64,000 nucleotides of DNA. It comes from Hemileia vastatrix (taxonomy: Eukaryota > Basidiomycota > Pucciniomycetes > Pucciniales > Zaghouaniaceae). The translations under genes and the position numbers were made by a program. Position 1 is the first letter of the stretch. Every line of letters starts with the position of its first letter. Positions 11,656 to 63,450 of this stretch are shown piece by piece. A model generated the notes under the pieces. That model saw only the letters and a list, made by a program, of their open reading frames with translations, was not told the DNA's origin and did not search any database. The stretch lies in assembly GCA_030280995.1 (NCBI GenBank), contig JASXTE010000002.1:2592001-2656000 (forward strand), given 5' to 3'.

Positions 11656-11726
11656 CCGTTTTCTTCAATATTCCTCATTCTTGTATTAACACAACTTCTG
11701 AAATTTCCTTTACAAGGGATAATAAA

Positions 11727-37129: not shown

Positions 37130-37130
37130 A

Positions 37131-37149
37131 TTGGTGTCCCAACAGTGAC
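37131..37149 (+). other. Element 3 primer binding site
   Basis: TTGGTGTCCCAACAGTGAC, one base after the LTR end. It matches the element 2 site with minor changes and carries the TGG that pairs with a tRNA CCA end. Confidence 0.7.
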
Positions 37150-37370
37150 ATAAATGTAACTAGTATTTTTGATTAGATTGTTTGGTTTTTAGATTTTCAT
37201 CAAGAGGACGTAATCAAGCTGGCACTTCAGTGGAAAAGTCGTAGGGTCTACAACGAGTGGATCAATAAGCCGTTATCAGAAGATAGCGTAGGGCTGTATC
37301 GTGAATATAGTCAGGTTTAATTACCAAGTGTGTGCTTTTGTGATCTCTGTTTCAATTATATATTTTGGGA

Positions 37371-45278: not shown

Positions 45279-48200
45279 TGAGGGCTGATCACCCTAGTGC
45301 TACAACCTCTCCCCAAGATGAGGAAATCCCAGGTTGTAGTAGGTCAGCTCCCTTGGAGATATACCAAGTGGATTTTCAACTTTCTCTTTTTAATGTTTCT
45401 CTTCTCTGCAAGTATTCATCAAGTTTTTTATCAAGTCTCTCTTCTCTCTCAAGATTCTCAATTATTTTTAATTCAAGCTCAAGAAAGAAGATTGGTTATA
45501 TATCTTTATTGAAAGATATGCGGAAAAGTTTTGGGGTGGTAAGATTGGGGTCTAAATGTAAGTCCTCCCAATTTTGCACAGCTAGGGTTTCTTCTACACC
45601 TTTCAAAAAACTTACCTGGGCCACACCTGTAAGCATTGGGGAAACCCCTGGTTATTTCTGTAGGTCAGAAGAAAACTCAAAAAAAGAAGATAATAATTTC
45701 AAGATAATTCAAGAAAATCAAAAAAAAAATCTGAAGATAATGAAGAATGAAGATCATCAAGATCAATTTTTGGGCCTCCAGCATGAGGTTAAACTGCAGA
45801 AAACTATGAAGAAAGAATATCATCAAGATCAATTTTTGGGCCTCCAGCATGAGGTTAAACTGCAGAAAATTATGAATAAAGAAGATCATCAAGATCAATT
45901 TTTGGGCCTCCAGCCTGAGGATAAACTGAAAAATTCTAAAAGAGTTGATTCTGAAGATAAATAAAGATTTGAAGATTTGAAAGACTGAAGTAAAGATGAA
46001 GATTTGGAATTGCGGAAAAGATTTGGAGTGGTGAGATTGGGGTCTAAAAGTAAGTCCTCCCAATTGTGCACCGCTAGGGTTTCTTCTACACCTTTCAAAA
46101 ACATTACCTTGTCCACACATGTGAGCAATCGGGAAACGCTTGGTTTTTGTTTCACGTCTGGTGGTGAAGATGTCCTGAAGATCCCTCAAGTTGAAGGTGG
46201 AGCGGCAAAGTATAAGAAGGTAGGGAAGAAGATTAGGCCTGTCAATGAGTCTATGCCTGTGGGTTTGATTCCGCCCTTGAAGAGACCTCCTTTGCAAAGA
46301 GATCTGTACTTTACTCCTTTGGTGAAGAATCCTCCAGAATTTGTAGAGATGGCTAGGGTGACTGTGGAAAGGTTGAAAGTTGTTAATTTTGGTCCTGATG
46401 TATTCTTTTCTGAAGAAGAAAAGAAGTTGTTGTTGCATGATATTGTGCTAAGGGAAAAAGCTGTGGCTTTTGTTGAGGAGGAAAGGGGTGTGTTGAAGCA
46501 CTCTTATGGGGAAACTTACTTGATTCCTGAGGTTTGTCATGAACCTTGGCAAATCAAACCTATTCTGATTCCAGCTGCTATCAGAGAGGATTTTGTGGAG
46601 ATTGTTAGAAAAAGAGTCAGGACTGGGTTATACAAACAATCAACATCCAGTTACTCAAGTCTGGCAGTCTGTGTAAAGAAGAAGAAAGGAAAATTGAGGG
46701 TGGTTCATGATCTTAGATCCTTGAATAGAGTCACTATCAAGGACGCAGGTATGCCACCAAGTGCAGAGGATTTTATTGAAGCTTTTGCTATAAGGTTGAG
46801 TTATATTTTGGGTGATATTATGGGTGGTTATAATGAAAGGGAACTTCATACAAATTCAAGGCCTCTTACAACTTTTGAGACTCCTTTGGGAAGATTTCAG
46901 CTCAACAGGCTGCCTCAAGGAGCAACTAATTCAATGGCAGTATATCAAGCACAGATGGCTTGGATTTTTTAGGATAAGGTTCCTACTCATGCTGGTATTT
47001 TTGTTGATGATGGTGTAATAAAAGGACCATCCACTGATTATGGTAATGAGGTTTTAATAAAAAACCCTGGCATAAGGAGGTTTGTTTGGGAATATGCACC
47101 AACTCTAGAGAGTGTGTTGTTTAGGATTGAAGAGGCTGGTTTGACCATTTAAGGGTCAAAATTCTGTTGTTGTGTTCCTGCCTTGGAAATTCTGGGTCAG
47201 GTGGTATTTAAAGAGGGAAGTATTATTGCAAAGAAAAATATTAATAAAATTCAGTAATGGCCAAGGCCTAAAAATAATACTGAAGTCAGGGGATTTTTGT
47301 GTGTGTGTGTATATGTCAGGATTTTTATTAAGGATTTTTCTTTGTTGGCTTCACCTTTAAGGAGGTTGAGCAGGAGAGATGCAGATTGGGAATGTACTGA
47401 AGAGTGTGAAGAGGCTTTTCAGAAGTTGAAAAAGGTTGTTGGGTAAGATATTGTTCTTCACAAGTTGGATTATGGTGTTGGTGCTTGAAAAATTTTCTGG
47501 CAGTGGACTCAAGCTTTATTGCTGCTCGTGATGTTTTGTCTCAGGAAGATAAAACTGGGAGGGTCAGGCCAGTGGTGTTTAATGAGGTGGAATCTAGGTA
47601 TTCTCAACCTAAGTTAGAATTGTGTGGTGTAGCAAAATTTTTAAAGAAGCTACAGACTGATTTGTGGGGGCAGAATTTTGAGCTTCAGGTGGATGCAAAA
47701 TCTTTGCTTCAGATGATCAATACACCTAGTCTTCCAAATGCTGCAATGACTAGTTGGGTGGCATTTACTCAACATTTTTCTTTTGAACTGGTACACAAAC
47801 CAGGCAAAACTTTTACAATGCCTGATGGATTATCAAGGAGGCCACCTACAGATGAAGATTCAGAGGCTTAAGAGTTTAATGAAGATGTTCCAGTGGTTAT
47901 GGCCAGCACAAAGGGTTCTGAAGATTTTTCTGACCTCCCCCAAGAGGCTAAACTGGCTGGATCTGATCTTGATTCTGGTGATCAGGATGTTTTTGTTGAT
48001 GAAGATACAGTTGTTCTTTGAGACAGCTCAAATTTGGAAAATGTTGTTTTTGTTAGTGAACAGGATTCTAACAAGATTCAGTGGAAAGAGAAGGATGTGT
48101 TAAAATTTAAGGATTGTTATCCTGGTTGGGCTGGTTAATTGGCTCATGTTAACACTGGTGATTTTTATGACAGAGTTGTACCCTTGGATGTGGTTTTGTT

Positions 48201-49525
48201 GGATTTTGAAGATGAGACCTGGGGTCAGTCTAGGTTTTATTTTATTATGGTGGAATATCTGTTGACCTTGGAGAGGCCAGATAGTTGTGATGATGATACC
48301 TGGGTGGCAATCAAGAAGAAGAGTCCTGGATTTTATTTTTCAGGAAGATAGTTGATGAGGAGGAGACATCCTAATCCTCAAGTTGTGGTGACTCAGAAAA
48401 AGGGTCAAGAAGTTGTGTTGAAGTCTTTGCATGAAGACCTTGGTCATAGAGGCTTTGCGAAGACTTATAGAAGAGTAGCTGAAAGATTTTGGTGGCCAGG
48501 TTTGAAGTTGGCTGTGCAGGGTTGGGTTCAATCTTGTGAAGAATGTCAAAGAAGAAGTCACTTGAAACCTAAAGAGGTTAGCCATGCTACTGGTGAATCA
48601 ACTGTTTTTGGAAGAGTCAGTCTGGATGCTGTCCATATTAAAGAGGGAAGATATAAATACTTAATTTTTTCCAGGGAAGATTTTCCTGGTTGTGTTGAGG
48701 CAGTGCCTCTGGTTAATTTGACTACCAAGAATGTGGCTGAGGTTTTGAAGAAGGAGTGGATTTATAGGTATGGGTGATGAAGTTGATGACTTTTGATGGC
48801 AGGCCAAAGTTTGGTGCCGAATTTAAAGAAGCTGTGGCTAGTGTTGGTTCTAAAGTTAGAGTGGCTAAACCTTATTATCCTGAAGCTAAAGGCATGGTTG
48901 AAAGAGGCCATAAAGTTATCAAGAATGCTTTGGTAAAGATGTGTGGGGATAGTGCTGAAAAGTGGAGGCATTATTTACCCTTAGTGTTATTTGCTGATAG
49001 GGTCACTGTGAAGAGGACAACTGGATATTCTCCTTATGAGTTAATTTTTGGTCAGAAAGCTGTTCTACCAGTGTATTTGGAAGCTGTCTTTTATCTTGGA
49101 ATTGATTGGGATGATGTGCCCTCAACAGAAGAATTGCTCTGTGCCAGGATGCAACAGTTGGAATGTAGAGAGGAATGTCAAGAGAAGGCATACTCTAGAA
49201 TGATGAATATTAGGAATCAATCAGTCAGATATTGGGAAAAGAAGTAGACTCATAGACTCAGGAATCCCTTGAAACCTAGTTTTTGGTTTTGGTTTATAAT
49301 AGAAGTTTGGAGAGTCAATGGGGAAGAATTTTTGCTGACAGATAGAATGGACCTTACAGAGTTAGATCTCAGGTGTCTGGAGGTTCTTATGTTTTGGAAG
49401 AGTTGGATGGTGCAGTCTTAAAGAAGAGAGTGGCTGCAGATCAGGTGAAGAGGTTTTATCCCAGAGGCACTAAACATGAAGAAAATTGACTCTGCAATGA
49501 GGATAAACTATGGAACATTCTTTAA
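45273..49525 (+). pseudogene. Pol of element 4 (RT, RNase H, integrase), broken
   Basis: Segments align in order with the intact pol of element 5. There is an N-terminal variable part with LQHEVKL repeats (45770-45930). The reverse transcriptase follows, with RPLTTFETPLGR and F-V-D-D near 47000. RNase H lies near 47500-47850. The integrase zinc-binding part has CEEC near 48540, and the catalytic blocks are near 48620, 48795 and 48895. The second catalytic block reads FDGRPKFG, matching VDGGPEFG of element 5. At least eight stops or shifts interrupt it. It ends in NEDKL plus a few residues at 49525. Confidence 0.85.
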
Positions 49526-51150
49526 ATTTTGGAATTTTTGGTGTTGCAGAGCAACTTTTGTGTTGGAAACCTTTTGTTAGAAGGTACCCATGGGTGAGAT
49601 TCTAGATTTGATCTTGGAAAGTGTAGGGGTAACTGAGGCGCTGGCTGCTCTGTAGAACAGTTACCCCAGATTGTCTGTTTCCAACCCTTTCTCTTAATTT
49701 GGTTGAACCCTAGTATTGGTTTATATTCACAGGTTATAGTCCTCTATGACTTTAAACTGGAATTTCTTTTGTTTTTCAAGTGCTGGACTCTTCACTCTTA
49801 TTGGTTTTGGTTTATTGTGTTGGATGCTGTGTTTTTGTTAGAAGGTACCCGGGGGGGACTTCTGATTTTATTTTGGCAAGTGTGGGGGTAACTGATGAGC
49901 TGGCTGCTCTGGAGAACAGTTACCCCAGAATGTCTGTCTCAAGTCTTTTGTTTTTTCCTAGTTTAATTCTAGTTCTGTTGTTAATTATTCAGGTTTTAAG
50001 TCCACTATTACTTGAAACTGGTTTGGGACTGTCTTCTTTATCTTTGGTTTTTTTTGTTTGGTGGTGGATCACTTGTGGTCTCCCATCATTTTTACTTATT
50101 GGAGGGAGCCCACCGAGTGATAATTTCTATGCACTGGAATTTCTCTTACTGAACCTTCTCTTAATCTAGACCATCCATGGAGCTCGAATTTCTTTAATTT
50201 TTTAGTTATGATTTTGCTAGATAGTAGTTTCAGATTATTTTCTTTTTTCTCTTTCTTTCTTTTAATTTTTTATGGGGGTTGTTAAAATTATAAAATCAAA
50301 AATATAGGGTGTTACCACATCAGGGTCACCTGAATGTGGGCAAGCATTGGTGGGGAAAGGCTTATCAATTTGCCGGGAAATGCTATTTTATCATTTATTT
50401 TATTTTATTTTTACTTTCATTAATGTCATTTTTTATTTTTTATTTTCATTATTACCCTTATCTTATGATTCTTATTTAAAATCATTTGAATTTTTTAAGG
50501 TGTATCCACATCAAGGTGCACTTGGATGTGGGCAAGGTATAAGGGGATCAGCTCATCAATTGGCTGGGGGATACCATTTGTATTATTTTTTATCTTATAT
50601 TTTGATTCATTTATTTTTATTTTATTTATCAATTTTTAATTTTAGTATGTTAGTAGAATGTAAAAAATAAAAATTAAAAAAATAAAAAAATAAAAAATAA
50701 TTTTTTCTTTAGAATTTATAGTTATTAATTTTATTTTATTTTATTTATTATTATCTTTTTAATCTTTTTGCAGGAGCTCATTGTCTGGATGATGAAGTTT
50801 CTGGAGGCTGGTCTGGATTATGATGTCATTTTTGTTTTAGTTGGGATTGTGGGAAGCACTGTTTTCTTTGAAGTGCATCCTTCTGGAGAGATGATATTGA
50901 TTATAATGGGCAGGAATGGGTTTGGATGGAAGTTCAGAAGAGGAAGAATAAGAGGCAGGAATGGATTGTTGGAAGGTGTGCTTAATGATCCTAGAAATCT
51001 TCCAGTGGTCATCCAATAGTTGTTTCCTCAAGGTTTCTCAAAGTCATTTAAAGGTCCATGGAGGGCAAAGGCTTTCAGAATGTTTGAACACAGGGCGCTG
51101 AGGTGTTGTTTCATGTCTCCATAATACAGGGTCAAAGAAGTTTATAGAGG
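49526..51150 (+). other. Element 4 3' noncoding region with repeated hairpin modules
   Basis: Two copies of a GGGGTAACTG...CAGTTACCCC hairpin module (49626-49667 and 49885-49926) are followed by two copies of a CCACATC...GATGTGG module (50314-50377 and 50506-50570). AT-only tracts separate them (50380-50500, 50575-50765). Plus-strand ORFs here are not convincing. 50837-51031 may hold decayed C-terminal exon remains of the antisense gene. Confidence 0.6.
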
Positions 51151-52334
51151 TTAGTTATCTTCAATAGTAGATTCAGGAGGAGGGGAGCCAACTAGACAAG
51201 AAGAATTGGATCAGTAATTATTTTTTTTGAGGAAATTGAATGAATTATTGTGTTACTTACAGATTGGAAGCTCATCAAATTGGTAAGTGGCTGGAATTTG
51301 GACTTCTGAAGATTTTGGAATGTTGATAGTAGGTGGATCAATCAGGGAAAGATATGGATTCTCTTGGTCTTCCCCTAAAAAGTTTTTGAGAATGTGAACT
51401 AGGAGGCTGATGTTTCTGGGGCCTAGTTCGAGCAGCAGGTCTGTTGTTGCTGTTGTTAATTTTTCTGCTTGATTCAGTTGGATGAGGTGCTGGTTGTGGA
51501 GTACCAGGGTTTTTATAAGATAGGGCAGGAGAGGGTGATCTCGGAGCAAATTGATCTCTTCTGGATGGAGCTCTTGAAGGAAGGGAACTGTCAGAAGAAT
51601 AGTTGGCTGGAAGAGGAGAGGTGTAGTTTTGTTTCCTTAAATGGAGGCAAAGTTGTTGTTTTGGTGCAGTGTTGGGTGCACTGGTGTCTTCCTGGGGTCC
51701 TCTGGAAGGTCTCCTAAAGGTTTGGGAAAATTTGGAGTCTTTGGACCTTAGAAAGGGTGGTTGCATTGCTTTGGGAGCAGTGGGAGGTGGCTGCATGGAG
51801 TTGTTTTTGTTGATTGGAGGAATTCTGTTATTTTTGGAAGTTTTGAGCCTGATTTTCACTGTCTAGTGAGGCAGGCGGGCCGCCTGACGTTGGCCTGGTG
51901 GCCTAGATGCAATATAGCAGTCTAGAAGCTGATTTTGAAGCTTTTGGAGCTAAATTAGAAGAGATAAAAGCTGTTTCTTGGAGAGTTAAAGTAGGCCTTT
52001 TAGGGAGAGTTCTGGAAACTGAGTTTCAGGATCTTCTGGATAATGCTGAGGATAAGGATGAAGAGGCTGGACCAAGCTCTGGGAATCTGGTAGGGGATCT
52101 AGAGAGGTATTTATGAGAAGGTGAAGGAGGAGGAATAGGGTAGTTGGCATCTGTGTCACATTTCTTGTTTTTGGAGTAGCAAGAATCACAGGCTCTGTTG
52201 TAGAATTCAGCTTCAGGAGTTGGAAGAGTGAATGTGCAAGGTCTGCACATGTGGATGCACTGTTTGCAGGCATAGTCCTTGGGAGCAGTGAAGCAAGGAA
52301 TATTGGAGGGGTCAAAATCAGGGGATCCAGCCAT
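51151..52334 (-). pseudogene. Antisense gene B of element 4: Zn2Cys6 protein, broken
   Basis: The start is the ATG at 52334. Residues 23-58 give C-X2-C-X6-C-X15-C-X2-C-X6-C, a Gal4-type binuclear zinc cluster with a long linker and a basic second half (YSKNKK). The frame then stops at 52026; after shifts, a long Ser/Pro/basic linker runs at 51859-51338 and 51549-51261. A GT-AG intron (51260-51192, GTAAGT...TAG) leads to an exon starting with GSP, as in the intact relative at 56912, but a stop follows at 51151. It is opposite in direction to gag-pol. A GC-rich block at 51869-51890 shared with the LTR lies inside it. Confidence 0.6.
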
Positions 52335-52479
52335 GATCTGTGGTGAGAAAAGATGATGGAAAGAGATAAGAAGGAGATTTTTATCAGTGATGGGTAGATG
52401 ATGAAGTGAAGGTGGAAGCTCAGCAGGTTGGCGTAGGTTTATTCTGTATGAAATTGGCTGGGTCTAGTTTATGCAAAAC

Positions 52480-52870
52480 TCTGGTAGTCCATCAAGACTT
52501 TAAATTCAACCCTTTGTTAGTCCCCCAAGACTTTAAACTGAGGATTGTTTGATGGTGTAGTCCCCCAGGACTATAAACTGACAAATGGGTTTTTGTTGTT
52601 GGAATGGGTTAGAAAGATTGGCAGAGGGTATCCACAGGGGGAGACTCTGAATTTAGCAAAGGCAAGTTTGGGGGTAATTGATGGGCTGGAAGCTCTATTC
52701 ACAATTACCCCAGAATTTTAGTTTTTTCTCTGTGTCTTAATGTGGTTGATCTCTGGTTCTGAGTTTATGATTTAGGTTTTTGAGTCCCCCAAGACTTTAA
52801 ACTGAGGGTTTTTGAGTCCCCCAAGACTATAAAATGAGGATGGTCCCCCAAGACTTAAAACTGAAGGTTT
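52480..52870 (+). repeat. Minisatellite of CCAAGACTTTAAACTG-type motifs, element 4
   Basis: Six or more copies of a ~22-bp motif (for example CCCAAGACTTTAAACTGA) at irregular spacing, with a GGGGTAATTG...CAATTACCCC hairpin at 52671-52711 among them. It lies between antisense genes A and B, upstream of B. The same arrangement is found in element 5. Confidence 0.7.
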
Positions 52871-52925
52871 TTTTGTGGTTACATCCTATAGAGGGTGTGG
52901 GCAATTTTTCTTTTCTGAATCAAAC

Positions 52926-53597
52926 TCATGTACTAGTGGAATTACAGAGGGAATCAAGAGATGAAATGAAGTGTTCAGAATTAGCCTTGAACTGTTGAAT
53001 GAGGTTTCTTCTGTTCTCAATGTCCTGTGGATCTCTAGCAGGAGTGAATTGGAAGTAGTTTAGCAGAAGGTGTTTCTGTTGAGATGTGTGTTGTTGGAAC
53101 TTGGCCTTAATTGTGGACAAGTGGTTTGTTGTTGGTGGTTCAATGGATCCTACATTGTTATCATCACTTTCAGAAGATGAAGGAACTGAGAAGTCATCAG
53201 TTTTATAAAGTGGAAAGAATAAATGGAAGTTTTTACCATCAGATGGACCAGGGATGGTGGAACTTGTTGTTTTAGTTGTTTTGGCACTCTTCAGGGAAGG
53301 GTGTAGCTTTTTGATTAATCTGGGAATTAAGATGGATGGCCCAGATCTTTTGGTGCTGGTAGAAGATGGACCAGGTTGAGGTGGAGGTGAAGCTGTTGCA
53401 GAAGATAATGGAACAGGTCTGTAGCAGGACTTCGTTCTAGATTGGCAGACATCACAGGAATTTCTGTATAGATGGACAGGAGGTGTGATGGTGCAGATTA
53501 GATCATTGCCAATGCAGTATTGGCAAGGACCCATTTCAGAGGCAGATTTGGGAAGAAGGTTGAAGATGGTGGTTTGATGAAGAAAAAATGTGGACAT
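52926..53597 (-). CDS. Antisense gene A of element 4: small Zn2Cys6 protein
   Basis: Open from the ATG at 53597 (19 bp inside the LTR edge) to 52926, 223 codons. The frame also extends upstream into the LTR to 53687. The cluster is C-X2-C-X6-C-X12-C-X2-C-X6-C (CQYC...CDVC), exactly Gal4-type spacing. A Ser/Pro/Thr-rich linker and a C-terminal helical domain with YFQFTP follow. A possible 51-bp intron (53236-53186, GT...CAG) contains no stop; removing it gives about 206 residues, close to gene A of element 5, and puts the junction at the same place. Zn2Cys6 proteins bind DNA and usually regulate transcription. A function here is inferred. Confidence 0.6.
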   Translation of the reverse strand: MSTFFLHQTTIFNLLPKSASEMGPCQYCIGNDLICTITPPVHLYRNSCDVCQSRTKSCYRPVPLSSATASPPPQPGPSSTSTKRSGPSILIPRLIKKLHPSLKSAKTTKTTSSTIPGPSDGKNFHLFFPLYKTDDFSVPSSSESDDNNVGSIEPPTTNHLSTIKAKFQQHTSQQKHLLLNYFQFTPARDPQDIENRRNLIQQFKANSEHFISSLDSLCNSTST

Positions 53598-53601
53598 TCT
53601 T

Positions 53602-53615
53602 AATTGGAGGGAGGA
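53602..53615 (+). other. Element 4 polypurine tract
   Basis: AATTGGAGGGAGGA immediately before the LTR start at 53616. It is identical to the tract of element 5 (54944-54957). Confidence 0.85.
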
Positions 53616-53775
53616 TGTGGTCTTCCAACATTGGCAGGGGCCTTTGTTGTGTGTTTTGGCGCTGTTTGTGCATGTCTTAATTGACATCTGTTGAAGAATT
53701 GGGTATTTTTCTGGTTTTATTCTGTGGATATTGGGTCTGTAGGTATGTGGGTACTATCATTGGATAGCCCCGGTA
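53616..53775 (+). repeat. Element 4 3' LTR, first 160 bp
   Basis: It matches 41732-41890 with scattered differences, then ends where element 5 begins. The exact junction (53773-53776) is uncertain by a few bases. Confidence 0.8.
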
Positions 53776-54943
53776 TGGTAAGGTAAACTCTTACAGTCGC
53801 CTTTCTGTAAGCAGAATCCGGAGGAGATATGTGGATTTAGCTGAAAACCCCGTCCTTCCAATAAAAATAACAAAATGGGAATTCTAAATCACTAAGCTAA
53901 CCAATCTACTTGGATCTGATTGATAAAAATAATGAAACTCTAAAATATTTAACGCTTATTGAGATTTAAAGAAAGTGGCTGTTGATAAAAGAAATACTGA
54001 TGACAACAATTAAGGTGTACCAGTGAAAGATCTGTAAAGATTGACTTTTATGTTTTTATAATAATTTGAATTTTTATGAGACAGCAATAATCAAGTCCCA
54101 GCGATGAAGACCTTTCTAAAGATACCCTGTATGAAGTGTGATTTAAATTGTTGAGTAGTATTTCTAAAAATGTTATATATAAAATATAAAGTTATAAGGG
54201 TATTACAAATTTATTTAATTTGTTGAGTAATAAAAAATGAGACCGTGGTAGTTAATGATTAAGCTGTATGACGTGTTCCCCCCTCTCAATTTCGAGTTTG
54301 AGAAGCGCTTAAGTATTCCTAGTCACGTGCCTAAGTTTTCCCCTCCAGAGCTCTTCCAGAGTCAATCCGGAGCCCGTACGGAGTCCGTACGGAGCCGGAA
54401 CGGAGTCCGTACGGAGTCAAAGCAGAGTCCGTACGGAGTCGAAACGGAGTCCGTACGGAGTCCGTCCGGACTTCCGGACTCAATTTAGAACCTTAAAACC
54501 ATAATAAAAAATCTAGAAAAATTACACATAATAGAGCTTCTTCCCCTTTACATACCAAACTAATTTTCGTAGTCTGCGCAGCTCTAATTACCCCGTGAAA
54601 ATTCATCAAAGTTAAGTAATTTTTGAAAACGTAAATATTTCTATAAAACTTTAAAATTCATTTAAAAATATAAAAAAAATAGTAAAAATTCTGGGAAAAT
54701 TTTCCAAGGTTCTTGAGTGACTTGACTTGATACTTATAAATTTTTCAGACCATAAAAATAAATTTTCTCCGTAAAATAAATTGTATTTGTGTAGGCATTC
54801 GCTCGTGACCAATTTCTTCATATTTTAAACTCCAAAATAAATTAAATAAAACCCTTTTTTAAAAAAATAATAACGCCAATCTTGCACTCCGTAATAACTC
54901 CATTTACATATTTAGGTGCCGTACTAAACTTTAGGCTACCACA
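53776..54943 (-). repeat. Element 5 3' LTR
   Basis: On the minus strand it begins TGTGGTAGCC at 54943, right after the polypurine tract. The other end at 53776 is inferred from TG...CA symmetry and the break in element 4's LTR, giving 1168 bp. A short ORF at 54255-54488 is only a reading of the GC-rich array. Confidence 0.75.
54358..54480. promoter_or_regulatory. CGG/CCG triplet array in the LTR
   Basis: About 120 bp of repeated GGAGTCCGTAC-type 11-mers with roughly ten CGG and ten CCG triplets and five copies of the palindrome CCGTACGG, in an otherwise AT-rich LTR. CGG half-sites with 2- or 3-bp spacers are typical Zn2Cys6 targets. Binding is inferred. Confidence 0.6.
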
Positions 54944-54957
54944 TCCTCCCTCCAATT
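54944..54957 (-). other. Element 5 polypurine tract
   Basis: The minus strand reads AATTGGAGGGAGGA, next to the LTR start, identical to that of element 4. Confidence 0.85.
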
Positions 54958-55066
54958 GAGAATGTCCCCATTCTTAAAACTTTGCATAAGTGGTTGAACA
55001 CAATATTCATCTTTAACCTTCAACCACCATCTTCTTTAATCAACTATAAAATTCATCTTCATCAAT

Positions 55067-55760
55067 ATGTCTTCCAAAGAACTTGTCGCTCCATGTGAAC
55101 TCTGCGCTTGATACCAGGTACCTTGTTTAATGTCCAACCCTAATCTTCCTGGCAGAACAGCTTGCGACTTATGCCGTGTGAAAAAAGTCAAATGCAACCG
55201 GCCAATAGTTCCTTCTAAAACAAACGTATATTTAGGACCAGCAGCTCTCCCTGATCCCTCAACTTCTAAAAAGCGATCCAAAATTCCTGTCTTCTTAAAA
55301 CGAATAAGATCAAAAACAGCTTCAAAAAATCAATCTTCATCAACGGATCCTGGCCTAATTTTGCCTTCACAAGATCCTAATCCTATAACGCCAGTACCCC
55401 CAACTAACTTTGCTGAGACTATGTTTCCTGGCTCTAAATGTAAGACCCTATTTATCTTACTAAAAAAAAACTTTTAATCAAAATTGACTAAACCTATGAC
55501 TTAATAACATATTTGAACTTCTAGCTGTCGAAATAACCAACACTGATGATGTTGGTAGAGTGAAGACGGACTATATCAATCATTACCCAAATTTTCATCG
55601 CTATCTTTTTCTTGACTTTACTAATGAGTTGAAACAAAAAATGCTGGCCTATTTTCAAGAAACTCCAGCTAATAACCATGAAGACCTCATGAAAAGAAGG
55701 ATTTTAATGCAAAGCTTTGATAATGATGTTGAACAATTTCAAAGAAATTATCTTTTCTAA
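55067..55760 (+). CDS. Antisense gene A of element 5: small Zn2Cys6 protein, one intron
   Basis: Exon 1 is 55067-55439 and exon 2 is 55525-55760, with an 85-bp GT-AG intron (GTAAGA...CTAG) that keeps the frame; 202 codons. The cluster reads C-X2-C-X6-C-X12-C-X2-C-X6-C, with a second half CDLCRVKKVKC that looks like a classical fungal Zn-cluster. A Ser/Pro-rich linker and a C-terminal helical domain with YFQETP and MKRR follow, matching gene A of element 4. Codon 15 (55109-55111) is TGA, inside the first half of the cluster. Either this copy is mutated or translation starts at the in-frame ATG at 55130, which would lose three cysteines. It starts 124 bp from the LTR, reading away from it, so the LTR may supply the promoter. 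Confidence 0.65.
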
Positions 55761-56911
55761 CAGTATAACTTGATAAAATTTTGTTTTTGCTTGGTCTTCT
55801 TAAACTTTATAATAAAAATGTTGTTTCTTCTTCTCTGGCTTGATATAACATAAATTAAAATAATATAAATCTTGTGATGATTCCACTACTGAGAGCAAGG
55901 TTTGAATCCCTTCAGACTCCCATATACCAGTCTTCCTTCTTGTCACAGCATTGAGAGAGTGGATCTTCCTATGAGCCGAATACTCCTGATTCCAACCTCA
56001 TAGGGCCCCCCACTGAGCCGAATTCTATGATTCCAATCTCTATATAAGGTCCTCCAAGCTTCACACCAAAAAAAAAATGGCCTAACTATGAGGCACTAAA
56101 AAAAATCATTCCCTAAAATCCAACTACCATCCTAACTTCTGATTCCTTCATCACAATTTTCAAACTTTGCTATACAGCAAACCCATAAAATACTTTTTCC
56201 AGGCTTCCAATAATAATTTAACTTTAGACCATGTTAAAGAGCCACAAATTTCACCTAATTAACCATTATGCTTTCTTTAGCATCATCACCACCTAAAGTT
56301 TTAACCTCCTAAAGCTATCAGCACCCAATTCCAGAAATAATTGAATAACCAGTTTAGAGTCTTAGGGGACAGTGATAAATTAAAAGATTGAATTGAGTTA
56401 TCCAAAAAAGATTGATATTCCAATTTAAAGTCTTGGTAGACTAAACATATAATCGATTGCCAGTTTATGGTCTTGGTGGACCAAAGATCGTTTAAGTGCA
56501 TAAATATCTTGATATATTCCTAAGTAAGGCCTAGGCTTGACCAAAGATTGAATAAATTTGATAATCCAGTTTAATGTCATAGTGGACCAAACATTTGATT
56601 GACAAGTAATCCAGTATAAGGCCATAGTGGTCCAATGAATGTTGAATTATCCTGCAGATATTAATTTTCCAGTTTAAAGTCATAGTGGACTAAACAATGA
56701 ATGAACTACCAGTTTAAAGTCATGGTGGACCAAACATTTAATTGATAAGAAATCCAGTTTAAGGTCATGGTGGACCCAACAGCTTGATAACAATCCAGTT
56801 TAAGGTCTTGGTGGACCTAACAACTTCTCTATCCTTGAACCCAGATTCTGCCACCAGCTTTCTTCATCCTAGTTTCAAGTTTTCTTCTTCAAAAAAATAT
56901 CTCCTAACAAG
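55761..56911. other. Spacer between antisense genes A and B of element 5
   Basis: 55860-56090 is unique sequence with several CCGAAT/ATTCC words. 56349-56830 is the minisatellite listed separately. No ORF. Confidence 0.5.
56349..56830 (-). repeat. Minisatellite of CAGTTTAAGGTCTTGGTGGACC-type motifs, element 5
   Basis: About ten copies of a ~22-bp motif spaced 40-50 bp (for example near 56349, 56420, 56460, 56565, 56610, 56668, 56707, 56753 and 56796), just upstream of gene B. Read on the minus strand it is the same motif as at 52480-52870 and as the LQQEGKL-coding repeats in pol. Confidence 0.8.
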
Positions 56912-57903
56912 ATGAAACCTTCTGACTTCATTGCTTCAGCTGATCAATCTTGCAAATACTGTGCCTTCACCCATAGGGAATGTATCTTCTCTTTTAACTG
57001 GCAAAAGCACACTTATAACAGGGCCTGTTTATCCTGCTATGAGAAGAAAAGAAAATGTTCTGGCTTGAACTGTGGTTCTTTCCCCATCACTGCTACTAGC
57101 TTCGCCGCCTTCTGCAAACCTCTTCCTTCTTCTTCACCTTCTACTCCACCCCCTATTCCATCAACCTCTAAAGATCCCATCCCTTTTTCTCCATCAGCCT
57201 ATTTAAACCTTTCTCCATCACCTAATCCTCTGTGTCCTTCTCTCCAATCTAGACTTGCTGCTAGTCCCCCAAGAACTCTTGCTGCTCCCAGGGCCATGCT
57301 TCAGCCTTCTAACAATTCTTCTCCTTCTTCCAACATCTTGAAGCACAAAAGGTCCTATAATAGCCAGCAGTCTTCATCTTCTCTTGTTTCATCCAAAAGG
57401 CCCAGAACATCTACTTCAAACACCAAATCCAACACCAGTCCTCCTCATCTATCAAAAATAAAAAATCCCACTCCATTACCAAGTAAGCCATTTATCTATG
57501 ATCTTGATAGTGTTGACACAGGTTAGTTGTCTCTTTTATTTTCTTAATCTTCATGTTTTAATTTGCTGATATTTTAATTTGATAAGCGTCCACCGGTTCT
57601 CCAATTTCATATTCTGCTTATGAACTACCAGAACCTAATCCAAGCTTCCCTAGAGTTCCAATTCACCTAGTGTCTGAAAAGCTTTTTGCTAATTTTAATA
57701 ACCTTATCGCTTATTTCCAACGATACCCGCCCTCTGATAGATCAGAATCTTGGATGAGAGAGCAACTGTTAAGAGACCTTTTCAAAATAGCCAACTGGCT
57801 TCAACACTATCGTGACCGTGAAATAAGATTCAAATCCCAGGAAATCGATCAAGGTCCTTCTAAATTTTCTAATTTCGATTCTTCAAAAGATAACAACCCT
57901 TGA
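56912..57903 (+). CDS. Antisense gene B of element 5: Zn2Cys6 protein, one intron, intact
   Basis: Exon 1 is 56912-57521 and exon 2 is 57587-57903, with a 65-bp GT-AG intron in frame; 308 residues. Residues 14-49 form C-X2-C-X6-C-X14-C-X2-C-X6-C (CKYC...CLSC), with a basic second half (YEKKRK). A long Ser/Pro/Lys-rich linker has a basic patch near KHKRSYN and SSKRPRT that could be a nuclear signal. The C-terminal exon has a helical domain with YFQRYPPS, like gene A. No stop or shift is seen. It runs opposite to gag-pol. Likely a DNA-binding protein; its target is unknown. Confidence 0.7.
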
Positions 57904-58322: not shown

Positions 58323-59097
58323 AAATTTTAAAAGATGCCCCCCCGCCATTTGATGAGCCGTACCCTTGACATCATACCCACATCCAAGTGCAACTTGATG
58401 TGGTTACACAATTTTGAGAAATTGAAAAGAAAAGAAAATAAATGAAAGTTTTTAGAAGATATTTTTTATAATGATGATCACTGGGTGGGCTCCCTCCAAT
58501 TTATAAAAATGATTAGAGACCACCAGTGAGCATCACCTTTACATTAATTCATAATATATATTAAAGAAAAGAAATCACAATCTAACATAAAAAATCAAAA
58601 ACAAAATAAAATATAAAAAAATCTTGAATCCGGCGTTGAGAGCGGTGTCTCTTGATTCGTTCCAGTTTATAGTCTTAGTGGACTTCCTAAAATTAAAAGA
58701 CAAAGCCAGGATTCAACTAGAAACAGGGAAAATTTTGGAAACGAACATTATGGGGTAATTGTGTATAGAGCAGCCAGCCCATCAATTACCCCCACACTTG
58801 CCAATATTAAATTAAGAAGGTTCCCCTGTGAACACTTCTTCCAATAAATTTTAAAATTTTTCCAACACTATCTTCACCCATATTTTAAGAATTTTTAATT
58901 TTGAAAATTTTCAATGAAGGTTTTCTTGCATTTTGTTATGTTTCATCACAGTTTCGTCGCCCATATGCAGTGTAATGATAGTAAAGTATTTTTGATAAAA
59001 ATAAGAAGATAGTTTATACTCGTTGCGGAGGAATCCATAAAATTTCGTAGATATCATAGTTTATCCTCATTTCGGAGTTGATAAAATTTAAGAAATT
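57904..59097 (-). other. Element 5 3' noncoding region after pol
   Basis: In minus-strand order this holds three near-copies of the last pol codons (59125-59011), a GGGGTAATTG...CAATTACCCC hairpin (58792-58752), the CCACATC...GATGTGG module (58404-58338), and an A/T-only tract (58320-57980) with a run of about 50 T at 58265-58316. The same module order occurs in element 4. Confidence 0.65.
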
Positions 59098-62000
59098 TCA
59101 TAGTTTATCCTCATTGCGGAGGAATCCTTCGGCACTCCTGGTGCCTCTAGGATAGAACCATTTCACTTGATCGGCCGCTACCCTCTTCTTTAATACTACT
59201 CCATCCAACTCTTCTAGCACATATGAACCGCCGGAAACTTGCTCCTTGATTTTATACGGTCCATTCCACCTATCTGAAAACATCTTTCCCCACTGACTTT
59301 CCAAACTCCTATTATACACCAGGACCATATCTCCTGGGTTCAAAGGTTTCCTTAATCGATGTGCCAACCGCTCATCCCAATATCTAACTGATTGATTTCG
59401 GATCTTCATCATCCGTAAATATGCCTTTTCTAAATATTCTTCTTTCTTTTCTAGCTGCATCATTCTTGCACACAATAATTCTTCAGTAGTTTTGACCATG
59501 TCCCAGTCAACTCCAAGATATGATTCAGCTTCTAAATAAACCGGTAAAACTGCTTTCTGTCCAAAAACATGTTCATAAGGTGAAAATCCGGTCGTCCTTT
59601 TGGCAGTGATTCGATCAGCAAATAAAACTAAAGGTAAATAGTGCCTCCACTTTTCGGCACTTGTCCCACACATTTTAACTAAAGCATCCTTAATAACTTG
59701 ATGCCCTCTTTCAACCATGCCTTCAGCTTCAGGATAATATGGGGTTGCTACCCTAACCTTTGATCCAACTTTCAATACGGCCTCTTTAAACTCTGTCCCA
59801 AATTCAGGACCTCCATCTACCGTCACCAACTTCATCACCCCATACCTATATACCCAATTATTCAAAAAAAATTCTGCCACATTTTTGGCGGTTAAATTAA
59901 TAAGAGGCGCTGCCTCTACCCAACCAGATAAATCATCTCTGGCCACAATTAAATATTTATACCGTCCCTCTTTTATATGAACGGCATCTAAACTAACTCT
60001 TCCAAAGAGAGTATATTCACCGGTCGCGCGTCCAGGTTCGTTTGGCCTTAAATAACTTTGTCTTTGACATTCTTCGCATGACTGAACCCACTGTTTAACA
60101 GCCATCTTCATGCAAGGCCACCAAAATCGATCAGAAATTCTTCTAAACGTTTCTCCCACGCCTCTATGCCCAAGATCTTCATGCAGTGATTTCAAAACTA
60201 ATTCTTGCCCCTTCTGTTGAGTTATAACTACTTGAGGATTTGGATACCTCCTCCTCATTAAACGTCGACCAGATAGGTAAAACGTAGATGACTTCCTCTT
60301 GATAGCCACCCATTCATCGTCTTCACAATCTTCTGGCCTCTCTAAAGTCAACAAATATTTGACTAACAAAAAATAAAAACCAGTCTGACCCCAGACTTCA
60401 TCTTGAAAATCGATTAATATAACATCAATAGGGACTTCTCTATCACCAATATCACCTGCACATGAATGAGCCAATAATCGTTGACCCCTAAATAAATTTT
60501 TAATCGAGCTATGACAACGTTTTTCTTCTGAACCTTTGGATCCTTCGAAAACTTTATTCAAAAATACCTCTTTCTCTTTATCCACCTTTTTATTTAAATT
60601 CTCTAATTCTCCAACATATACACCATTCCTTAATTTACTACTATCCCACACTACCAATCCATCTTCCTCTACATACACCACATCTTCTTCTACCTCCTCT
60701 CTGCCGAATTTATCTACACCTTTTTCAACACCTTTTTTAACATAAAAACTATTTTCCAGTTTATCCTCTTGGTGGAGGTCATCATCATCATAATCTAAAC
60801 ACAATAGTCCTGCCAGTTTAACCTCATGGGGGAGGTATGGAAAGTCTTCAGCTCCTTTAGTGCTGGCTTTGATAATAGGTATATCTTCATCGAACTCTTC
60901 TGAGTCTGAATCTTCTTCAGTGGGTGGTCTCCTTGACAAACCATCTGGCATAGTAAAAGTTTTGCCAGGCTTATGAACTAAATCAAACAAAAAATGTTGA
61001 ATAAAAGCTACCCATCTCGTCATGGGTGCGTTCGGTAAACTTGGTGAATTAATCATCTGGATTAACGATTTCGCATCCACTTGCAACTCAAAATGTTGCC
61101 CCCACAAAATATGCTGAAGTTTCTTCAGTATTTTCGCCACACCACATAATTCCAATTTTGGTTGAGAATATCTTGATTCGACCTCAGTAAATACTACAAA
61201 TTCATACCTAACTGGCCTGATGTAACCAGCTTTATCCATCTGAGACAGAACCGCCCCAGCTGCAACCTGACTTGAATCAACTGCTAAATAAATTCTACCA
61301 GCATCTTTTCCATAATCTAACTTTTGCAGGACTAAATCCTTCCCTACAACCTCCTTCAACTTCACAAACGCCTTCTCACACTCTTCATCCCACTCCCAGT
61401 CTGCATCCTTTCTCGTTAACCGTCTCAATGGAGCTGCCAATGAAGAAAAGTCCTTGATAAACATTCTAACATATACGCAAACGCCTAAAAACCCTCTAAC
61501 TTCGGTCGTATTCTTGGGTCTTGGCCAGGACTTAATTTTGTTAACTTTCTTCTTGGACATAATCCTACCCTCTCTACATACCACATGGCCTAATATTTCT
61601 AAGGCTGGCACACAACATGAAAATTTTGAACCTGAAATAGTTAAACCAGCCTCTTCAATTCGAAACAAGATTCTTTCTAAAGTAATTGCAAACTCCCAAA
61701 TGAATTTGCGTATCCCGGGATTCTCTTCCAACACCTGGTTATCATAGTCGGTTGTTGGTCCCTTAATTCCTCCATCATCTATAAAGATTCCAGCATATTG
61801 TGGAATTTCATCTTGAAGGATCCAAGCCATCTGAGCTTGATAAACTGCAACCGAATTAGTTGCTCCTTGAGGTAATCTTGTTAACTGTAAACGTCCAAGT
61901 GGCATATCGAATGTAGTGAGAGGCCTTGAGTCCGGATGTAACTCTCTCTCATCATATCCACCCATAATATCTCCCAAACCATAGCACACTCTCCCTGAAA

Positions 62001-63450
62001 ACGCTTCAACAAACTCCTCAGCACTAGGTGGTATCCCAGCATCCTTTATTGTAACCCTATTTAATTCCCTAAGATCATGAACAACTCTAAGCTTGCCATT
62101 CGGTTTCTTGATACAAAATACAGGACTAGAATAACTTGACGTTGATTGCTCATACAGTCCAGTGCGTATCCGTTCTCTGACAACTTCAATATAGGCTTCT
62201 TTTAATGCAGCCGGAATAGGAATCGGTTTCTGCTGCCACGGTTCATGACATACCACAGGAATCTTGTAAGGCTCCCCATAGGAATGCTTCAACACACCCC
62301 TCTCCTCTTCTACAAAAGCAATGGCCTTCTCTCGCTTGACCATCACATCCAACAACAACTTCTTCTCTTCTCCAGACAACCAACCATCAGGTAAAAAATT
62401 AACAACACCCAGTCTCTCAAAAGTGATTCTTGACATCTCAGAAAATTCAGGCGGATTCTTTACCAAGGGACTTTCATAAGGATCTCTTGATAACCTTGGT
62501 CTTCTCAAAGGTGGATTTAATTCAGCAGGTAGCGGTTCATTAATAGGTCGAACTTTATTTGCTACTTTCTTATATTTGGCTGCGTCCACATCTAAATAAG
62601 CTTGAGGTAAATCATTTACTTTTGTATCGCCATTAAAACTTTCATCAAATGAATCTTCTTCATCGCCAGAATCAGAATAAGAAAAATTAGAAAAATATTT
62701 TATTTCATTTTTAAATTTTACCCTTTTCTCCTTTCCCTCGTCTAATTTATAAACAGATTTTCCAATACCTTTTCTTCCCTTATCCAACAGTAAATCACCC
62801 GTAAAGAAAGTTGGCAGTTTAACCTCTTGCTGGAGAACCAGAATTGAATTTTCACAAAAATTATTTTTTTGTGTTTTAATTATACCGAGATTTTTTATTT
62901 GATTTTGATGAGATAATTGCAGTTTACCCTCTTGCTGGAGGTCCGGAATAACATTTTCACATAAATTATTTTTTTGTGTTTTGATTATACCAAGATTTTT
63001 AATCGGATTTTGATGTGATATTTGCAGTTTACCCTCTTGCTGGAGGTCCGGAATAACATTTTCACATAAATTATTTTTTTGTGTTTTAATTATACCAAGA
63101 TTTTTAATCGGATTTTGATGTGATATTTGCAGTTTACCCTCTTGCTGGAGGTCCATAAACATACCCTTCCAATTTTTATCCAACCTAATTTGGCCCATTT
63201 TGCCTTTTTCACCGTTTTTAAATTTTATAGAAAAACAGGGTAAATCCAATAAACATATAGAAAAGTCCATAACGTATTTGCACTCCAAAGTAATATTAAC
63301 AGAAAATAATTGAGAATCCACTTGAATTATCTCCAAGTGAGCTGACCTATTGCAATCCGGGATCTCATCCTGAGGAGAGATTACAACATTAGAGTGATCA
63401 GCCCCTGCTACCCCAAAAAATGAGGGCAACCATCCCTTTCCAACAAACAT
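59098..63450 (-). CDS. Pol of element 5 (RT, RNase H, integrase), intact
   Basis: This is 1450 codons. After a variable N-terminal part with three ~38-residue repeats (LQQEGKLQ, 63160-62815), the reverse transcriptase has RPLTTFDMPLGR and F-I-D-D at 557-560. RNase H begins around AVDSSQVAAG. The integrase has the HHCC zinc-binding part (H-X3-H in LHEDLGHRG and CEEC) and catalytic D1155, D1212 and E1247. A GPY/F-type C-terminus (WNGPYKI) follows, with no chromodomain. It is in the -1 frame relative to gag-protease and overlaps its end, so it is probably made by frameshifting at 63420-63414; the Met at 63450 lies inside the overlap and need not be used. Confidence 0.92.
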   Translation of the reverse strand: MFVGKGWLPSFFGVAGADHSNVVISPQDEIPDCNRSAHLEIIQVDSQLFSVNITLECKYVMDFSICLLDLPCFSIKFKNGEKGKMGQIRLDKNWKGMFMDLQQEGKLQISHQNPIKNLGIIKTQKNNLCENVIPDLQQEGKLQISHQNPIKNLGIIKTQKNNLCENVIPDLQQEGKLQLSHQNQIKNLGIIKTQKNNFCENSILVLQQEVKLPTFFTGDLLLDKGRKGIGKSVYKLDEGKEKRVKFKNEIKYFSNFSYSDSGDEEDSFDESFNGDTKVNDLPQAYLDVDAAKYKKVANKVRPINEPLPAELNPPLRRPRLSRDPYESPLVKNPPEFSEMSRITFERLGVVNFLPDGWLSGEEKKLLLDVMVKREKAIAFVEEERGVLKHSYGEPYKIPVVCHEPWQQKPIPIPAALKEAYIEVVRERIRTGLYEQSTSSYSSPVFCIKKPNGKLRVVHDLRELNRVTIKDAGIPPSAEEFVEAFSGRVCYGLGDIMGGYDERELHPDSRPLTTFDMPLGRLQLTRLPQGATNSVAVYQAQMAWILQDEIPQYAGIFIDDGGIKGPTTDYDNQVLEENPGIRKFIWEFAITLERILFRIEEAGLTISGSKFSCCVPALEILGHVVCREGRIMSKKKVNKIKSWPRPKNTTEVRGFLGVCVYVRMFIKDFSSLAAPLRRLTRKDADWEWDEECEKAFVKLKEVVGKDLVLQKLDYGKDAGRIYLAVDSSQVAAGAVLSQMDKAGYIRPVRYEFVVFTEVESRYSQPKLELCGVAKILKKLQHILWGQHFELQVDAKSLIQMINSPSLPNAPMTRWVAFIQHFLFDLVHKPGKTFTMPDGLSRRPPTEEDSDSEEFDEDIPIIKASTKGAEDFPYLPHEVKLAGLLCLDYDDDDLHQEDKLENSFYVKKGVEKGVDKFGREEVEEDVVYVEEDGLVVWDSSKLRNGVYVGELENLNKKVDKEKEVFLNKVFEGSKGSEEKRCHSSIKNLFRGQRLLAHSCAGDIGDREVPIDVILIDFQDEVWGQTGFYFLLVKYLLTLERPEDCEDDEWVAIKRKSSTFYLSGRRLMRRRYPNPQVVITQQKGQELVLKSLHEDLGHRGVGETFRRISDRFWWPCMKMAVKQWVQSCEECQRQSYLRPNEPGRATGEYTLFGRVSLDAVHIKEGRYKYLIVARDDLSGWVEAAPLINLTAKNVAEFFLNNWVYRYGVMKLVTVDGGPEFGTEFKEAVLKVGSKVRVATPYYPEAEGMVERGHQVIKDALVKMCGTSAEKWRHYLPLVLFADRITAKRTTGFSPYEHVFGQKAVLPVYLEAESYLGVDWDMVKTTEELLCARMMQLEKKEEYLEKAYLRMMKIRNQSVRYWDERLAHRLRKPLNPGDMVLVYNRSLESQWGKMFSDRWNGPYKIKEQVSGGSYVLEELDGVVLKKRVAADQVKWFYPRGTRSAEGFLRNEDKL
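62815..63160 (-). repeat. In-frame repeats in the pol N-terminus
   Basis: Three ~114-bp units (about 38 residues each) begin with LQQEGKLQ, and a fourth related LQQEVKL follows. The unit's DNA core CAGCAAGAGGGTAAACTG is the same motif as in the noncoding minisatellites. Confidence 0.8.

What the first reader, a model, noticed from the sequence alone, without database searches (positions are those of the whole stretch)
51151..57903. Giant Gypsy family carries two antisense Zn2Cys6 genes per copy
Elements 4 and 5 both have a ~4-kb region between pol and the 3' LTR, and on the opposite strand both encode two proteins (A near the LTR, B further in). All four have C-X2-C-X6-C-X(12-15)-C-X2-C-X6-C, the Gal4-type spacing, then a Ser/Pro-rich linker. 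A4, A5 and B5 share a short C-terminal domain around YFQ..P. The order, orientation and spacer minisatellite are the same in two independent copies, so this is a conserved cargo module. I know of no described fungal Gypsy element with antisense Zn-cluster genes. Possible roles are self-regulation of the LTR, host gene control or targeting.
Basis: partly seen in the sequence, partly recalled or inferred. Interest (0 to 1): 0.92.

Follow-up and report, generated by a model that had tools for sequence, protein, structure and literature searches.

The report
Rust jumping gene with antisense regulators
A very abundant family of jumping genes in what is probably a rust fungus carries, on its opposite strand, two genes for zinc-cluster-like proteins together with arrays of short repeated sites, which suggests a mobile element that carries its own gene-control system.

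Summary
Elements 4 and 5 (E4, E5) are two diverged Gypsy families of a 748-Mb genome, by its pol relatives a rust fungus. E5 (13.6 kb, LTRs 98% alike) sits inside the 3' LTR of the older E4. Both carry antisense genes A and B between pol and 3' LTR. All four proteins have CX2CX6C-X12-15-CX2CX6C, in swapped order relative to Gal4: where Pfam Zn_clus matches (3 of 4, below cut-off), it is the second triplet. A5, B5 and B4 have a predicted phase-1 intron. In the window A4 and B5 are open, A5 has a stop, B4 is broken. Variants shared between copies are depleted in replacements for B4 and B5; A4 and A5 lean the same way, not significantly. Of 30 E5-type copies, 12 have both genes, 14 A only, 1 B only, 3 neither. 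New here: a 21-bp core repeats just upstream of B in both families (21,428 exact genomic copies), and the E5 LTR holds CCGTACGG arrays. Best reading: self-encoded trans-acting regulators; binding is untested. Antisense genes in Gypsy elements are known (Retand, Boty brtn); this content and wiring appear new.

The parts
41732..42505 (+). E4 5' LTR, at least to 42505 where the fetched partner ends; it probably runs to about 42800, where a PBS-like TGGCACCCAATGTGGGG follows at 42809
   Evidence: 41732-41887 matches 53616-53771 at 91%; 41889-42505 matches 67361-67998 beyond the window at 84%; sequence
53616..53771 (+). left piece of E4 3' LTR, cut by the insertion of E5
45266..49510 (+). E4 pol, frame interrupted
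   Evidence: tblastn with E5 pol, 53-78% identity in four pieces
52926..53597 (-). gene A4, single open exon, 223 codons; Zn-cluster-like module, Ser/Pro linker, C-terminal helical hairpin (predicted)
   Evidence: 149 other scored relatives at 85-91%
51261..52334 (-). gene B4 exon 1 (interrupted in this copy), ends at a GT donor
   Evidence: relatives with frames open for 311-403 codons
51192..51260 (-). B4 intron (predicted; phase 1 in the open relative L087)
50900..51191 (-). B4 exon 2 with the C-terminal part (interrupted in this copy)
   Evidence: resemblance to B5 and A5 tested
52486..52863 (-). E4 array of six 21-bp cores between A4 and B4, directly 5' of B4
   Evidence: 6-10 cores at the same place in 4 of 4 relatives read there
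49572..50021 (+). two post-pol blocks of about 190 bp, each with the hairpin and one core
53774..54943 (-). E5 3' LTR (pair at 66197-67358 outside the window)
   Evidence: 97.95% over 1173 columns
54374..54470 (.). array of CCGTACGG palindromes in the E5 LTR (five copies)
   Evidence: none in 50 shuffles; at least one CCGNNCGG in 30 of 30 copies read, the window's own included
55067..55439 (+). gene A5 exon 1, with in-frame TGA in the first Cys triplet
55440..55524 (+). A5 intron (predicted), phase 1
   Evidence: sequence
55525..55760 (+). A5 exon 2, C-terminal YFQ domain
   Evidence: 32% identity over 68 aa to the A4 C-terminus, E=2e-8
56350..56817 (+). E5 array of eight 21-bp cores, directly 5' of B5
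56912..57521 (+). gene B5 exon 1 (ATG; swapped Zn module and Ser/Pro linker)
57522..57586 (+). B5 intron (predicted), phase 1, GTTAGT...TAAG
   Evidence: same ends in 30 of 30 copies
57587..57903 (+). B5 exon 2, C-terminal YFQ domain
58662..58847 (-). E5 post-pol block with hairpin and one core
   Evidence: 73% to the E4 blocks
59098..63453 (-). E5 pol open frame, 1451 codons: RT, RNase H, H2C2, integrase
   Evidence: relatives in Puccinia

Best explanation
E4 and E5 belong to one lineage of rust Ty3/Gypsy elements whose ancestor already carried two related genes, A and B, on the strand opposite to gag-pol. Shown from sequence: both encode a zinc-cluster-like module with swapped halves, a Ser/Pro linker and a C-terminal part; in three of four a predicted intron precedes that part; B has evolved under purifying selection in the lineages that spread; the stretch just upstream of B carries an array of a 21-bp core in both families; the E5 LTR carries palindromic CGG sites. 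Inferred: A is transcribed antisense from or through the 3' LTR (its frame opens 19 nt (A4) or 124 nt (A5) from the LTR), B from its own array promoter; the proteins pair through the helical C-terminus, enter the nucleus and bind the element's own DNA (core array and/or LTR palindromes), regulating the element in trans. Copies that lost A and/or B but kept the arrays would be trans-mobilised derivatives.
For: Four motif hits and none in 60 shuffles. Predicted intron with the same ends in 30 of 30 B5 copies, and exon 2, which was not part of the search query, open in 29 of 30; introns of the same phase in A5 and in the B4-type copy L087: introns on the antisense strand are not removed when the sense RNA is copied, and are best explained by a real antisense mRNA. 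Shared versus private variants: B5 omega 0.21 vs 0.53 (p=0.001), B4 0.47 vs 0.72 (p=0.0008); for B4 the effect holds in the linker, mostly outside the 102 codons used to find the copies (p=0.003). Cys codons spared. A second-triplet match to Zn_clus in A5 (E=8e-4), with PPR1 and GAL4 as best solved relatives (E 0.0015 and 0.32). C-terminal helical hairpin of A4 at pLDDT about 90. Core: 17 sites at up to 3 mismatches vs 0.01 expected, 21,428 exact copies in the genome vs 0 for the reversed pattern, directly 5' of B in both families. CCGTACGG array in the E5 LTR. B-less copies have 11-16 cores, B-bearing copies 8-9.
Against: No transcript, protein or binding data. A4 and A5 show no significant private/shared difference; in the DNA-selected B5 sample the difference is not significant either (exon 1 18/11 vs 6/6, p=0.51; exon 2 7/3 vs 0/2, p=0.15); the B4 Zn part alone gives p=0.09. 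10 of 24 full-length A5 frames have a stop. One Cys codon of A4 (codon 51) is replaced in 4 of 34 copies. Copies without A or B are common, so the genes are not needed in cis. All cores point the same way relative to the element, which DNA sites need not do and an RNA signal would. The E4 LTR lacks the CCGTACGG array. Nothing links either site to either protein. No pol control for the selection test (searches not answered). The Zn module of A4 is unresolved in the model (pLDDT mostly below 50).
Confidence: 0.45

Rival explanations
1. The genes are real and selected, but the 21-bp core is an RNA-level signal of the genomic transcript (packaging, export or stability), unrelated to A and B, which act on host genes or chromatin.
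For: All core sites have the same orientation relative to the element, weaker versions (3-4 mismatches) lie inside pol coding sequence of E4 and E5, and a conserved hairpin with a compensatory pair accompanies the core.
Against: The densest arrays lie directly 5' of gene B in both families. Within one array a common orientation follows from tandem growth and needs no function.
Confidence: 0.25
2. A and B are captured host transcription-factor genes kept as cargo that benefits the host or alters host genes.
For: The second triplet resembles that of ordinary Zn2Cys6 factors, and the assembly has at least 13 canonical matches over the Pfam cut-off (150 of 3259 candidates scored).
Against: No homologue of A4 or of B5 exon 1 in the protein collection (A5 and B4 were not searched), although the pol of the same element finds rust relatives there; both families share the module, so any capture is old; swapped halves. 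Of the 8 canonical matches whose contig length is known, 7 lie on contigs of 22-59 kb, which may not belong to the host.
Confidence: 0.12
3. What matters is the antisense transcription itself (double-stranded RNA, silencing control); the coding potential is a fading passenger.
For: Genes are lost in many copies; A4/A5 selection is not significant; antisense transcription as a regulatory device is discussed for plant elements (PMC7264820, parts 1-2 of 3 read).
Against: Depletion of shared replacements in B4 and B5, spared cysteines, conserved intron ends.
Confidence: 0.13
4. Chance open frames in AT-rich repeats.
For: Pfam scores are below the curated cut-off.
Against: Zero of 60 shuffles show the motif, recurrence in two diverged families, selection on B.
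Confidence: 0.02

Closest known systems
Retand lineage of plant Ty3/Gypsy elements (PMC11963269; passages seen, those of the abstract included)
   Same: Long pol-3'LTR region (2.9-6.6 kb), antisense ORFs with a putative DNA-binding domain (TRP28), tandem-repeat arrays in the same region in about half of the elements.
   Different: Domain is TRP28, not a zinc cluster; flowering plants, not rust fungi.
Maize Grande gene23, rice RIRE2 and other antisense aORFs (PMC7264820; parts 1-2 of 3 read)
   Same: Antisense gene between pol and 3' LTR; present in most copies of the families described; the Grande protein is nuclear and its gene has its own promoter.
   Different: The review describes no clear similarity of these proteins to others apart from an SMC and a transposase-28 domain; no zinc cluster and no core array are mentioned in the parts read.
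brtn of Boty-like Gypsy elements of Botrytis cinerea (passages in PMC7264820, PMC8365987, PMC4227169; the original 2011 paper not seen)
   Same: An antisense extra gene in a fungal Gypsy element.
   Different: No zinc cluster in the passages seen; ascomycete; one antisense gene is named.
HTLV-1 HBZ (a passage in PMC11963269, and the start of the abstract of PMC10186651 in a search listing; the bZIP nature and splicing are recalled)
   Same: Layout: antisense regulator read from the 3' LTR, nuclear, spliced.
   Different: bZIP, not zinc cluster; a retrovirus of people; no relation by sequence is claimed.
Fungal Zn(II)2Cys6 factors (GAL4, PPR1)
   Same: Two CX2CX6C triplets; second triplet ACxxCxxxKxKC matches the start of PF00172; CGG-type palindromes in the E5 LTR.
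   Different: Order of halves swapped, inter-triplet loop of 12-15 (canonical 5-12 is recalled), no other Pfam domain over its cut-off in the antisense pieces scanned.

Membership tests
Ty3/Gypsy LTR retrotransposon | pol order RT-RNase H-integrase, paired LTRs, short target duplication, PPT | tested here: met
   RT 448-624, RNase H 688-821, H2C2 1081-1132, rve 1152-1241 of the E5 frame (rve 29.1 bits is below its cut-off of 32.6); LTR pair 97.95%, CCGG on both sides, TTGGAGGGAGGA before the LTR
Zn(II)2Cys6 (PF00172) | profile match over the curated cut-off across both Cys triplets in canonical order | tested here: not met
   best 19.9 bits (A5) vs cut-off 21, only profile positions 1-15 on the second triplet; B5 10.9, B4 8.4, A4 none; the A5 piece lacked the start of its first triplet
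Zn(II)2Cys6 (PF00172) | six cysteines in two CX2CX6C triplets | tested here: met
Zn(II)2Cys6 (PF00172) | zinc binding and binding of CGG triplets | not testable with these tools
   CCGTACGG arrays exist in the E5 LTR; binding itself untested
Elements with antisense aORF between pol and 3' LTR | antisense ORF in that region present across copies and conserved | tested here: met
   not universal (A in 26, B in 13 of 30 copies)
Elements with antisense aORF between pol and 3' LTR | antisense transcription | not testable with these tools
   no RNA data held
Retand | TRP28 (PF04195) antisense domain | tested here: not met
   no PF04195 match in the six antisense pieces scanned; exon 2 of A5, B5 and B4 were not scanned
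HBZ-like antisense regulator (as analogy only) | antisense promoter in the 3' LTR | not tested
   frame starts 19 (A4) or 124 (A5) nt from the LTR; promoter activity unknown

The most novel reading that the evidence does not exclude
A retrotransposon lineage of rust fungi carries a complete self-recognition circuit: a pair of antisense, intron-containing, swapped-half zinc-cluster proteins, an array of their 21-bp target upstream of gene B and CGG palindromes in its LTR. Copies that drop the genes keep or enlarge the target arrays and spread as parasites of the parasite, leaving more than 20,000 copies of the target site scattered through the host genome.
Probability: 0.3. Interest if true: 0.87.

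Novelty: new variant of a known kind. Interest (0 to 1): 0.7.

Why it matters
Antisense genes of LTR elements have an open function in plants and fungi. Here the proteins have a recognisable DNA-binding-type module, are shared by two diverged families, show selection on B, and come with two candidate target sites in the same element, so the question 'what do antisense genes of retrotransposons do' becomes testable by a simple binding experiment. It would also bear on how rust genomes became so large and on how thousands of ready-made regulatory sites are strewn over them.

Tried and rejected
Homologues of A4 and of B5 exon 1 in the large protein collection: none at E<=0.1 and E<=1 (144 and 1044 word-sharing candidates); A5 and B4 were not searched. 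The pol control gave 76 hits, several of them named Puccinia, so rust proteins are in the collection, though genes of repeats may not have been predicted there. A link between gene A and the CGG array in the LTR, suggested, was an artefact of fixed locus ends and disappeared when positions were taken from the PPT. The C-terminal hairpin was not searched against structure libraries, because a two-helix hairpin matches too much. A GC-rich stretch of about 24 bases shared by the E4 LTR (42190-42213) and the B4 linker (51867-51890) was left unexplained. The genome-wide count of the CCGTACGG array did not complete either. Literature searches that listed no antisense Zn-cluster gene in an LTR element: (0 papers); they are narrow word searches in an open-licence library, of which I saw listings and a few papers, so absence from print is not proved.

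Biases and dropped rows: copies found by protein similarity favour intact frames, and those lists are capped at 150 scored. B4 relatives were further chosen by me for long open frames. The first 16 fetched A4 copies were all stop-free by my choice; 20 more were then taken, 9 of them with stops. Of these 37 A4 rows (window included) three were dropped for unequal length. L037 was dropped from B5; with L037 kept the counts were 76/42 vs 21/30, p=0.0066. L092 was dropped from B4; the window's B4 and L069 fell out (short or empty rows) and were not among the B4 rows. Two A5 copies of unequal length were dropped. A first table of B4's Zn part came out empty through an empty row and was not used.

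Full report
Where it lies. The window is G000:C338:2592001-2656000 of a 747.6-Mb, 791-contig genome; the window has 34% GC. The E5 pol (residues 900-1400) finds 76 relatives; those of 50-60% identity that bear an organism name are Puccinia striiformis and P. coronata, besides two rows labelled as a bacterial MAG. The host is therefore most likely a rust fungus; the species was not determined.

The two elements. E5 runs from 53774 to 67358 (13.6 kb; the last 3.4 kb lie beyond the window in L097), on the minus strand, with LTRs of about 1.17 kb that are 97.95% identical and CCGG on both sides. It sits inside the 3' LTR of E4, an older plus-strand element: 41732-41887 pairs with 53616-53771 (91%) and 41889-42505 with 67361-67998 (84%). 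The pol regions are 66-74% identical as DNA in the aligned pieces and 53-78% as protein, so they are two related families, and the shared module is most simply inherited rather than captured twice.

The antisense genes. A six-frame scan for two CX2CX6C triplets finds exactly the four claimed places and nothing in 60 shuffles. The second triplet is the one that resembles the start of a canonical zinc cluster (ACDLCRVKKVKC in A5; Zn_clus E=8e-4 for A5, 0.5 for B5, 3.2 for B4, no match for A4, always profile positions 1-15 of 39); the best solved relatives of A5 are PPR1 and GAL4 (E 0.0015 and 0.32). So the module is a zinc-cluster look-alike with swapped halves and not a standard Gal4 domain. 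A4 and A5 match each other over the Zn part and over the C-terminal part; B4 and B5 over the Zn part.

Gene structure. B5: exon 1 56912-57521, 65-nt phase-1 intron, exon 2 57587-57903; the intron ends are the same in 30 of 30 copies and 29 of 30 have the whole spliced frame (L037 is truncated). A5: exon 1 55067-55439, intron 55440-55524, exon 2 55525-55760. B4: exon 1 52334-51261, intron 51260-51192, exon 2 from 51191. B4's exon 2, read in the relative L087, resembles exon 2 of B5 (1 of 1000 shuffles as good) and of A5 (5 of 1000), but not the end of A4 (771 of 1000); for comparison A4-A5 0, A5-B5 2, A4-B5 80 of 1000. So one C-terminal domain for all four is likely by chain of resemblance, not shown for each pair. 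A4 is a single exon. A model of A4 from four sequences has a confident two-helix hairpin at 157-184 and 190-220 (pLDDT about 90) and a largely unresolved rest, Zn part included; a model of the C-terminal part alone also gives two helices. All introns are predicted from sequence; no RNA was seen.

Copies. B5 exon 1: 150 of 150 scored copies without stop at 96-100% identity, out of 7170 first-look candidates. A4: 150 scored of 15,672 candidates, 85-91% identity apart from the window's own, by my hand count of the table 59 with at least one stop. B4 exon-1 start: 150 scored of 9249, 16 with stops by hand count. These lists are capped and favour intact frames. A fairer sample came from a DNA search with the noncoding stretch 55850-56390 (40 scored of 2182, 30 read): 12 with A and B, 14 A only, 1 B only, 3 neither; all 17 without B reach the block that follows B. 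Of the 26 with A, 24 have the full length and 10 of those 24 an internal stop; of the 13 with B, exon 1 is open in 12. In the protein-picked set L009-L038, 9 of 30 lack A. The genes are thus often lost, and copies without them have spread.

Selection. Variants seen in one copy (mostly decay after insertion) were compared with variants shared by two or more copies (mostly inherited from copies that moved), with expectations corrected for the mutation spectrum. B5 (28 copies): omega 0.53 private, 0.21 shared, Fisher p=0.001. B4 exon 1 (11 copies): 0.72 and 0.47, p=0.0008. A4 (34 copies): 0.87 and 0.59, p=0.32. A5 (24 copies): 0.83 and 0.50, p=0.57 (all). For B4 the effect is present in the linker, mostly outside the 102 codons used to find the copies (138/59 vs 78/66, p=0.003), less clear in the Zn part (15/6 vs 6/9, p=0.09). 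In 13 B5 copies chosen by noncoding DNA the direction is the same but not significant (exon 1 0.52 and 0.36, p=0.51; exon 2 p=0.15). In 17 stop-free A4 copies the pooled pN/pS is 0.60 overall, 0.44 in the Zn part, 0.71 in the linker, 0.47 in the C-terminal part, 0.92 before the Zn part. Cys codons carry a shared replacement in 1 of 29, other codons in 86 of 788. I conclude that B is a selected protein-coding gene, and A probably.

The 21-bp core. Flanks carry 0.4-0.7 bits per position and the core 1.6-1.7 in the E4, E5 and B4-upstream sets; in the extra array of B-less copies, which looks young, the flanks reach 1.2-1.3 (core values are raised by the way sites were picked). The array lies between A and B and directly 5' of B in both families; 4 of 4 further E4-type loci read there have 6-10 cores. 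The genome holds 10,860 + 10,568 exact copies and none of the reversed control. In the 30 E5-type loci, the 17 without B have 11-16 cores and the 13 with B have 8-9; the B-bearing loci end inside B exon 2 and so could miss cores beyond it, of which the window's E5 has one. In L040 the extra array lies where B would be. Weaker versions lie in pol coding sequence, partly in tandem repeats. The common orientation of all sites is a point for an RNA-level role.

LTR palindromes. The E5 LTR has CCGTACGG five times in the 3' copy and three times in the 5' copy, none elsewhere in the 68 kb read and none in 50 shuffles; 30 of 30 copies read, the window's included, have at least one CCGNNCGG in that LTR stretch, with or without A. 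Nine further A-less copies (of the L009-L038 set) could not be judged because their loci hold only about 220-370 bases of LTR. Everted or inverted CGG triplets are the recalled class of target of zinc-cluster dimers (GAL4 CGG-N11-CCG, LEU3). The E4 LTR does not have the array.

Mechanism. The best fit is a layout like that of HBZ of HTLV-1 (recalled, and passages in PMC11963269) combined with a self-encoded target array: A read from the 3' LTR, B from the array, both acting in trans on element DNA. Introns in the antisense genes are compatible with retrotransposition, since the sense genomic RNA does not splice them. None of the steps from transcription on has been shown.

Known kinds. [quoted passage not shown] PMC8365987 and PMC4227169, passages). 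Retand is the nearest in design, with antisense DNA-binding-type ORFs and tandem repeats in a 2.9-6.6 kb region (PMC11963269, passages). A survey of rust transposable elements (PMC12210899, passages) has no occurrence of 'zinc' or 'transcription factor' in its main text. I therefore rate this as a new variant of a known kind.

Noticed in passing
49626-49667, about 49885-49926 and 52671-52711 (+), about 58752-58792 (-): A hairpin GGGGTAAYTG...CARTTACCCC with conserved loop, about 100 bp before a core; the Y/R pair changes together between sites (35 TTG/CAA forms, 2 CTG/CAG forms, 4 others among all sequence held, in which some sites occur more than once).
   Followed up: partly
50099-50108 (+), 58490-58499 (-): An internal copy of the PPT-like TTGGAGGGAG in a block 86% alike between E4 and E5, outside the LTR junction.
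   Followed up: partly
45740-45928 and 62814-63154: Tandem repeats of 66 bp x 2.9 (E4) and 105 bp x 3.2 (E5, inside the pol frame), each holding a degenerate version of the 21-bp core.
   Followed up: partly
50500-50570 (+), 58339-58409 (-): A second conserved noncoding block, CCACATCAAG...CTTGGATGTGG, inverted repeat, 82% alike between the families.
   Followed up: no
25898-33440: About 12 copies of a 610-bp tandem repeat, with palindromes of 19-23 bp arms inside.
   Followed up: no
8757-11658 and 35929-38837: Long inverted-repeat arms, 86-91% alike in pieces, about 24 kb apart, enclosing the tandem array.
   Followed up: no
1-7866: A separate Gypsy element with 192-bp terminal repeats 97% alike (the first may be cut by the window edge) and an open 1838-codon frame ending in a chromodomain; it has no core.
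   Followed up: no
42190-42213 and 51867-51890: A GC-rich stretch of about 22-24 bp shared by the E4 LTR and the B4 linker.
   Followed up: partly
L001-L005, L007, L008: Seven of the eight canonical Zn2Cys6 matches with known contig length lie on contigs of 22-59 kb of a chromosome-scale assembly, so they may be foreign sequence.
   Followed up: no
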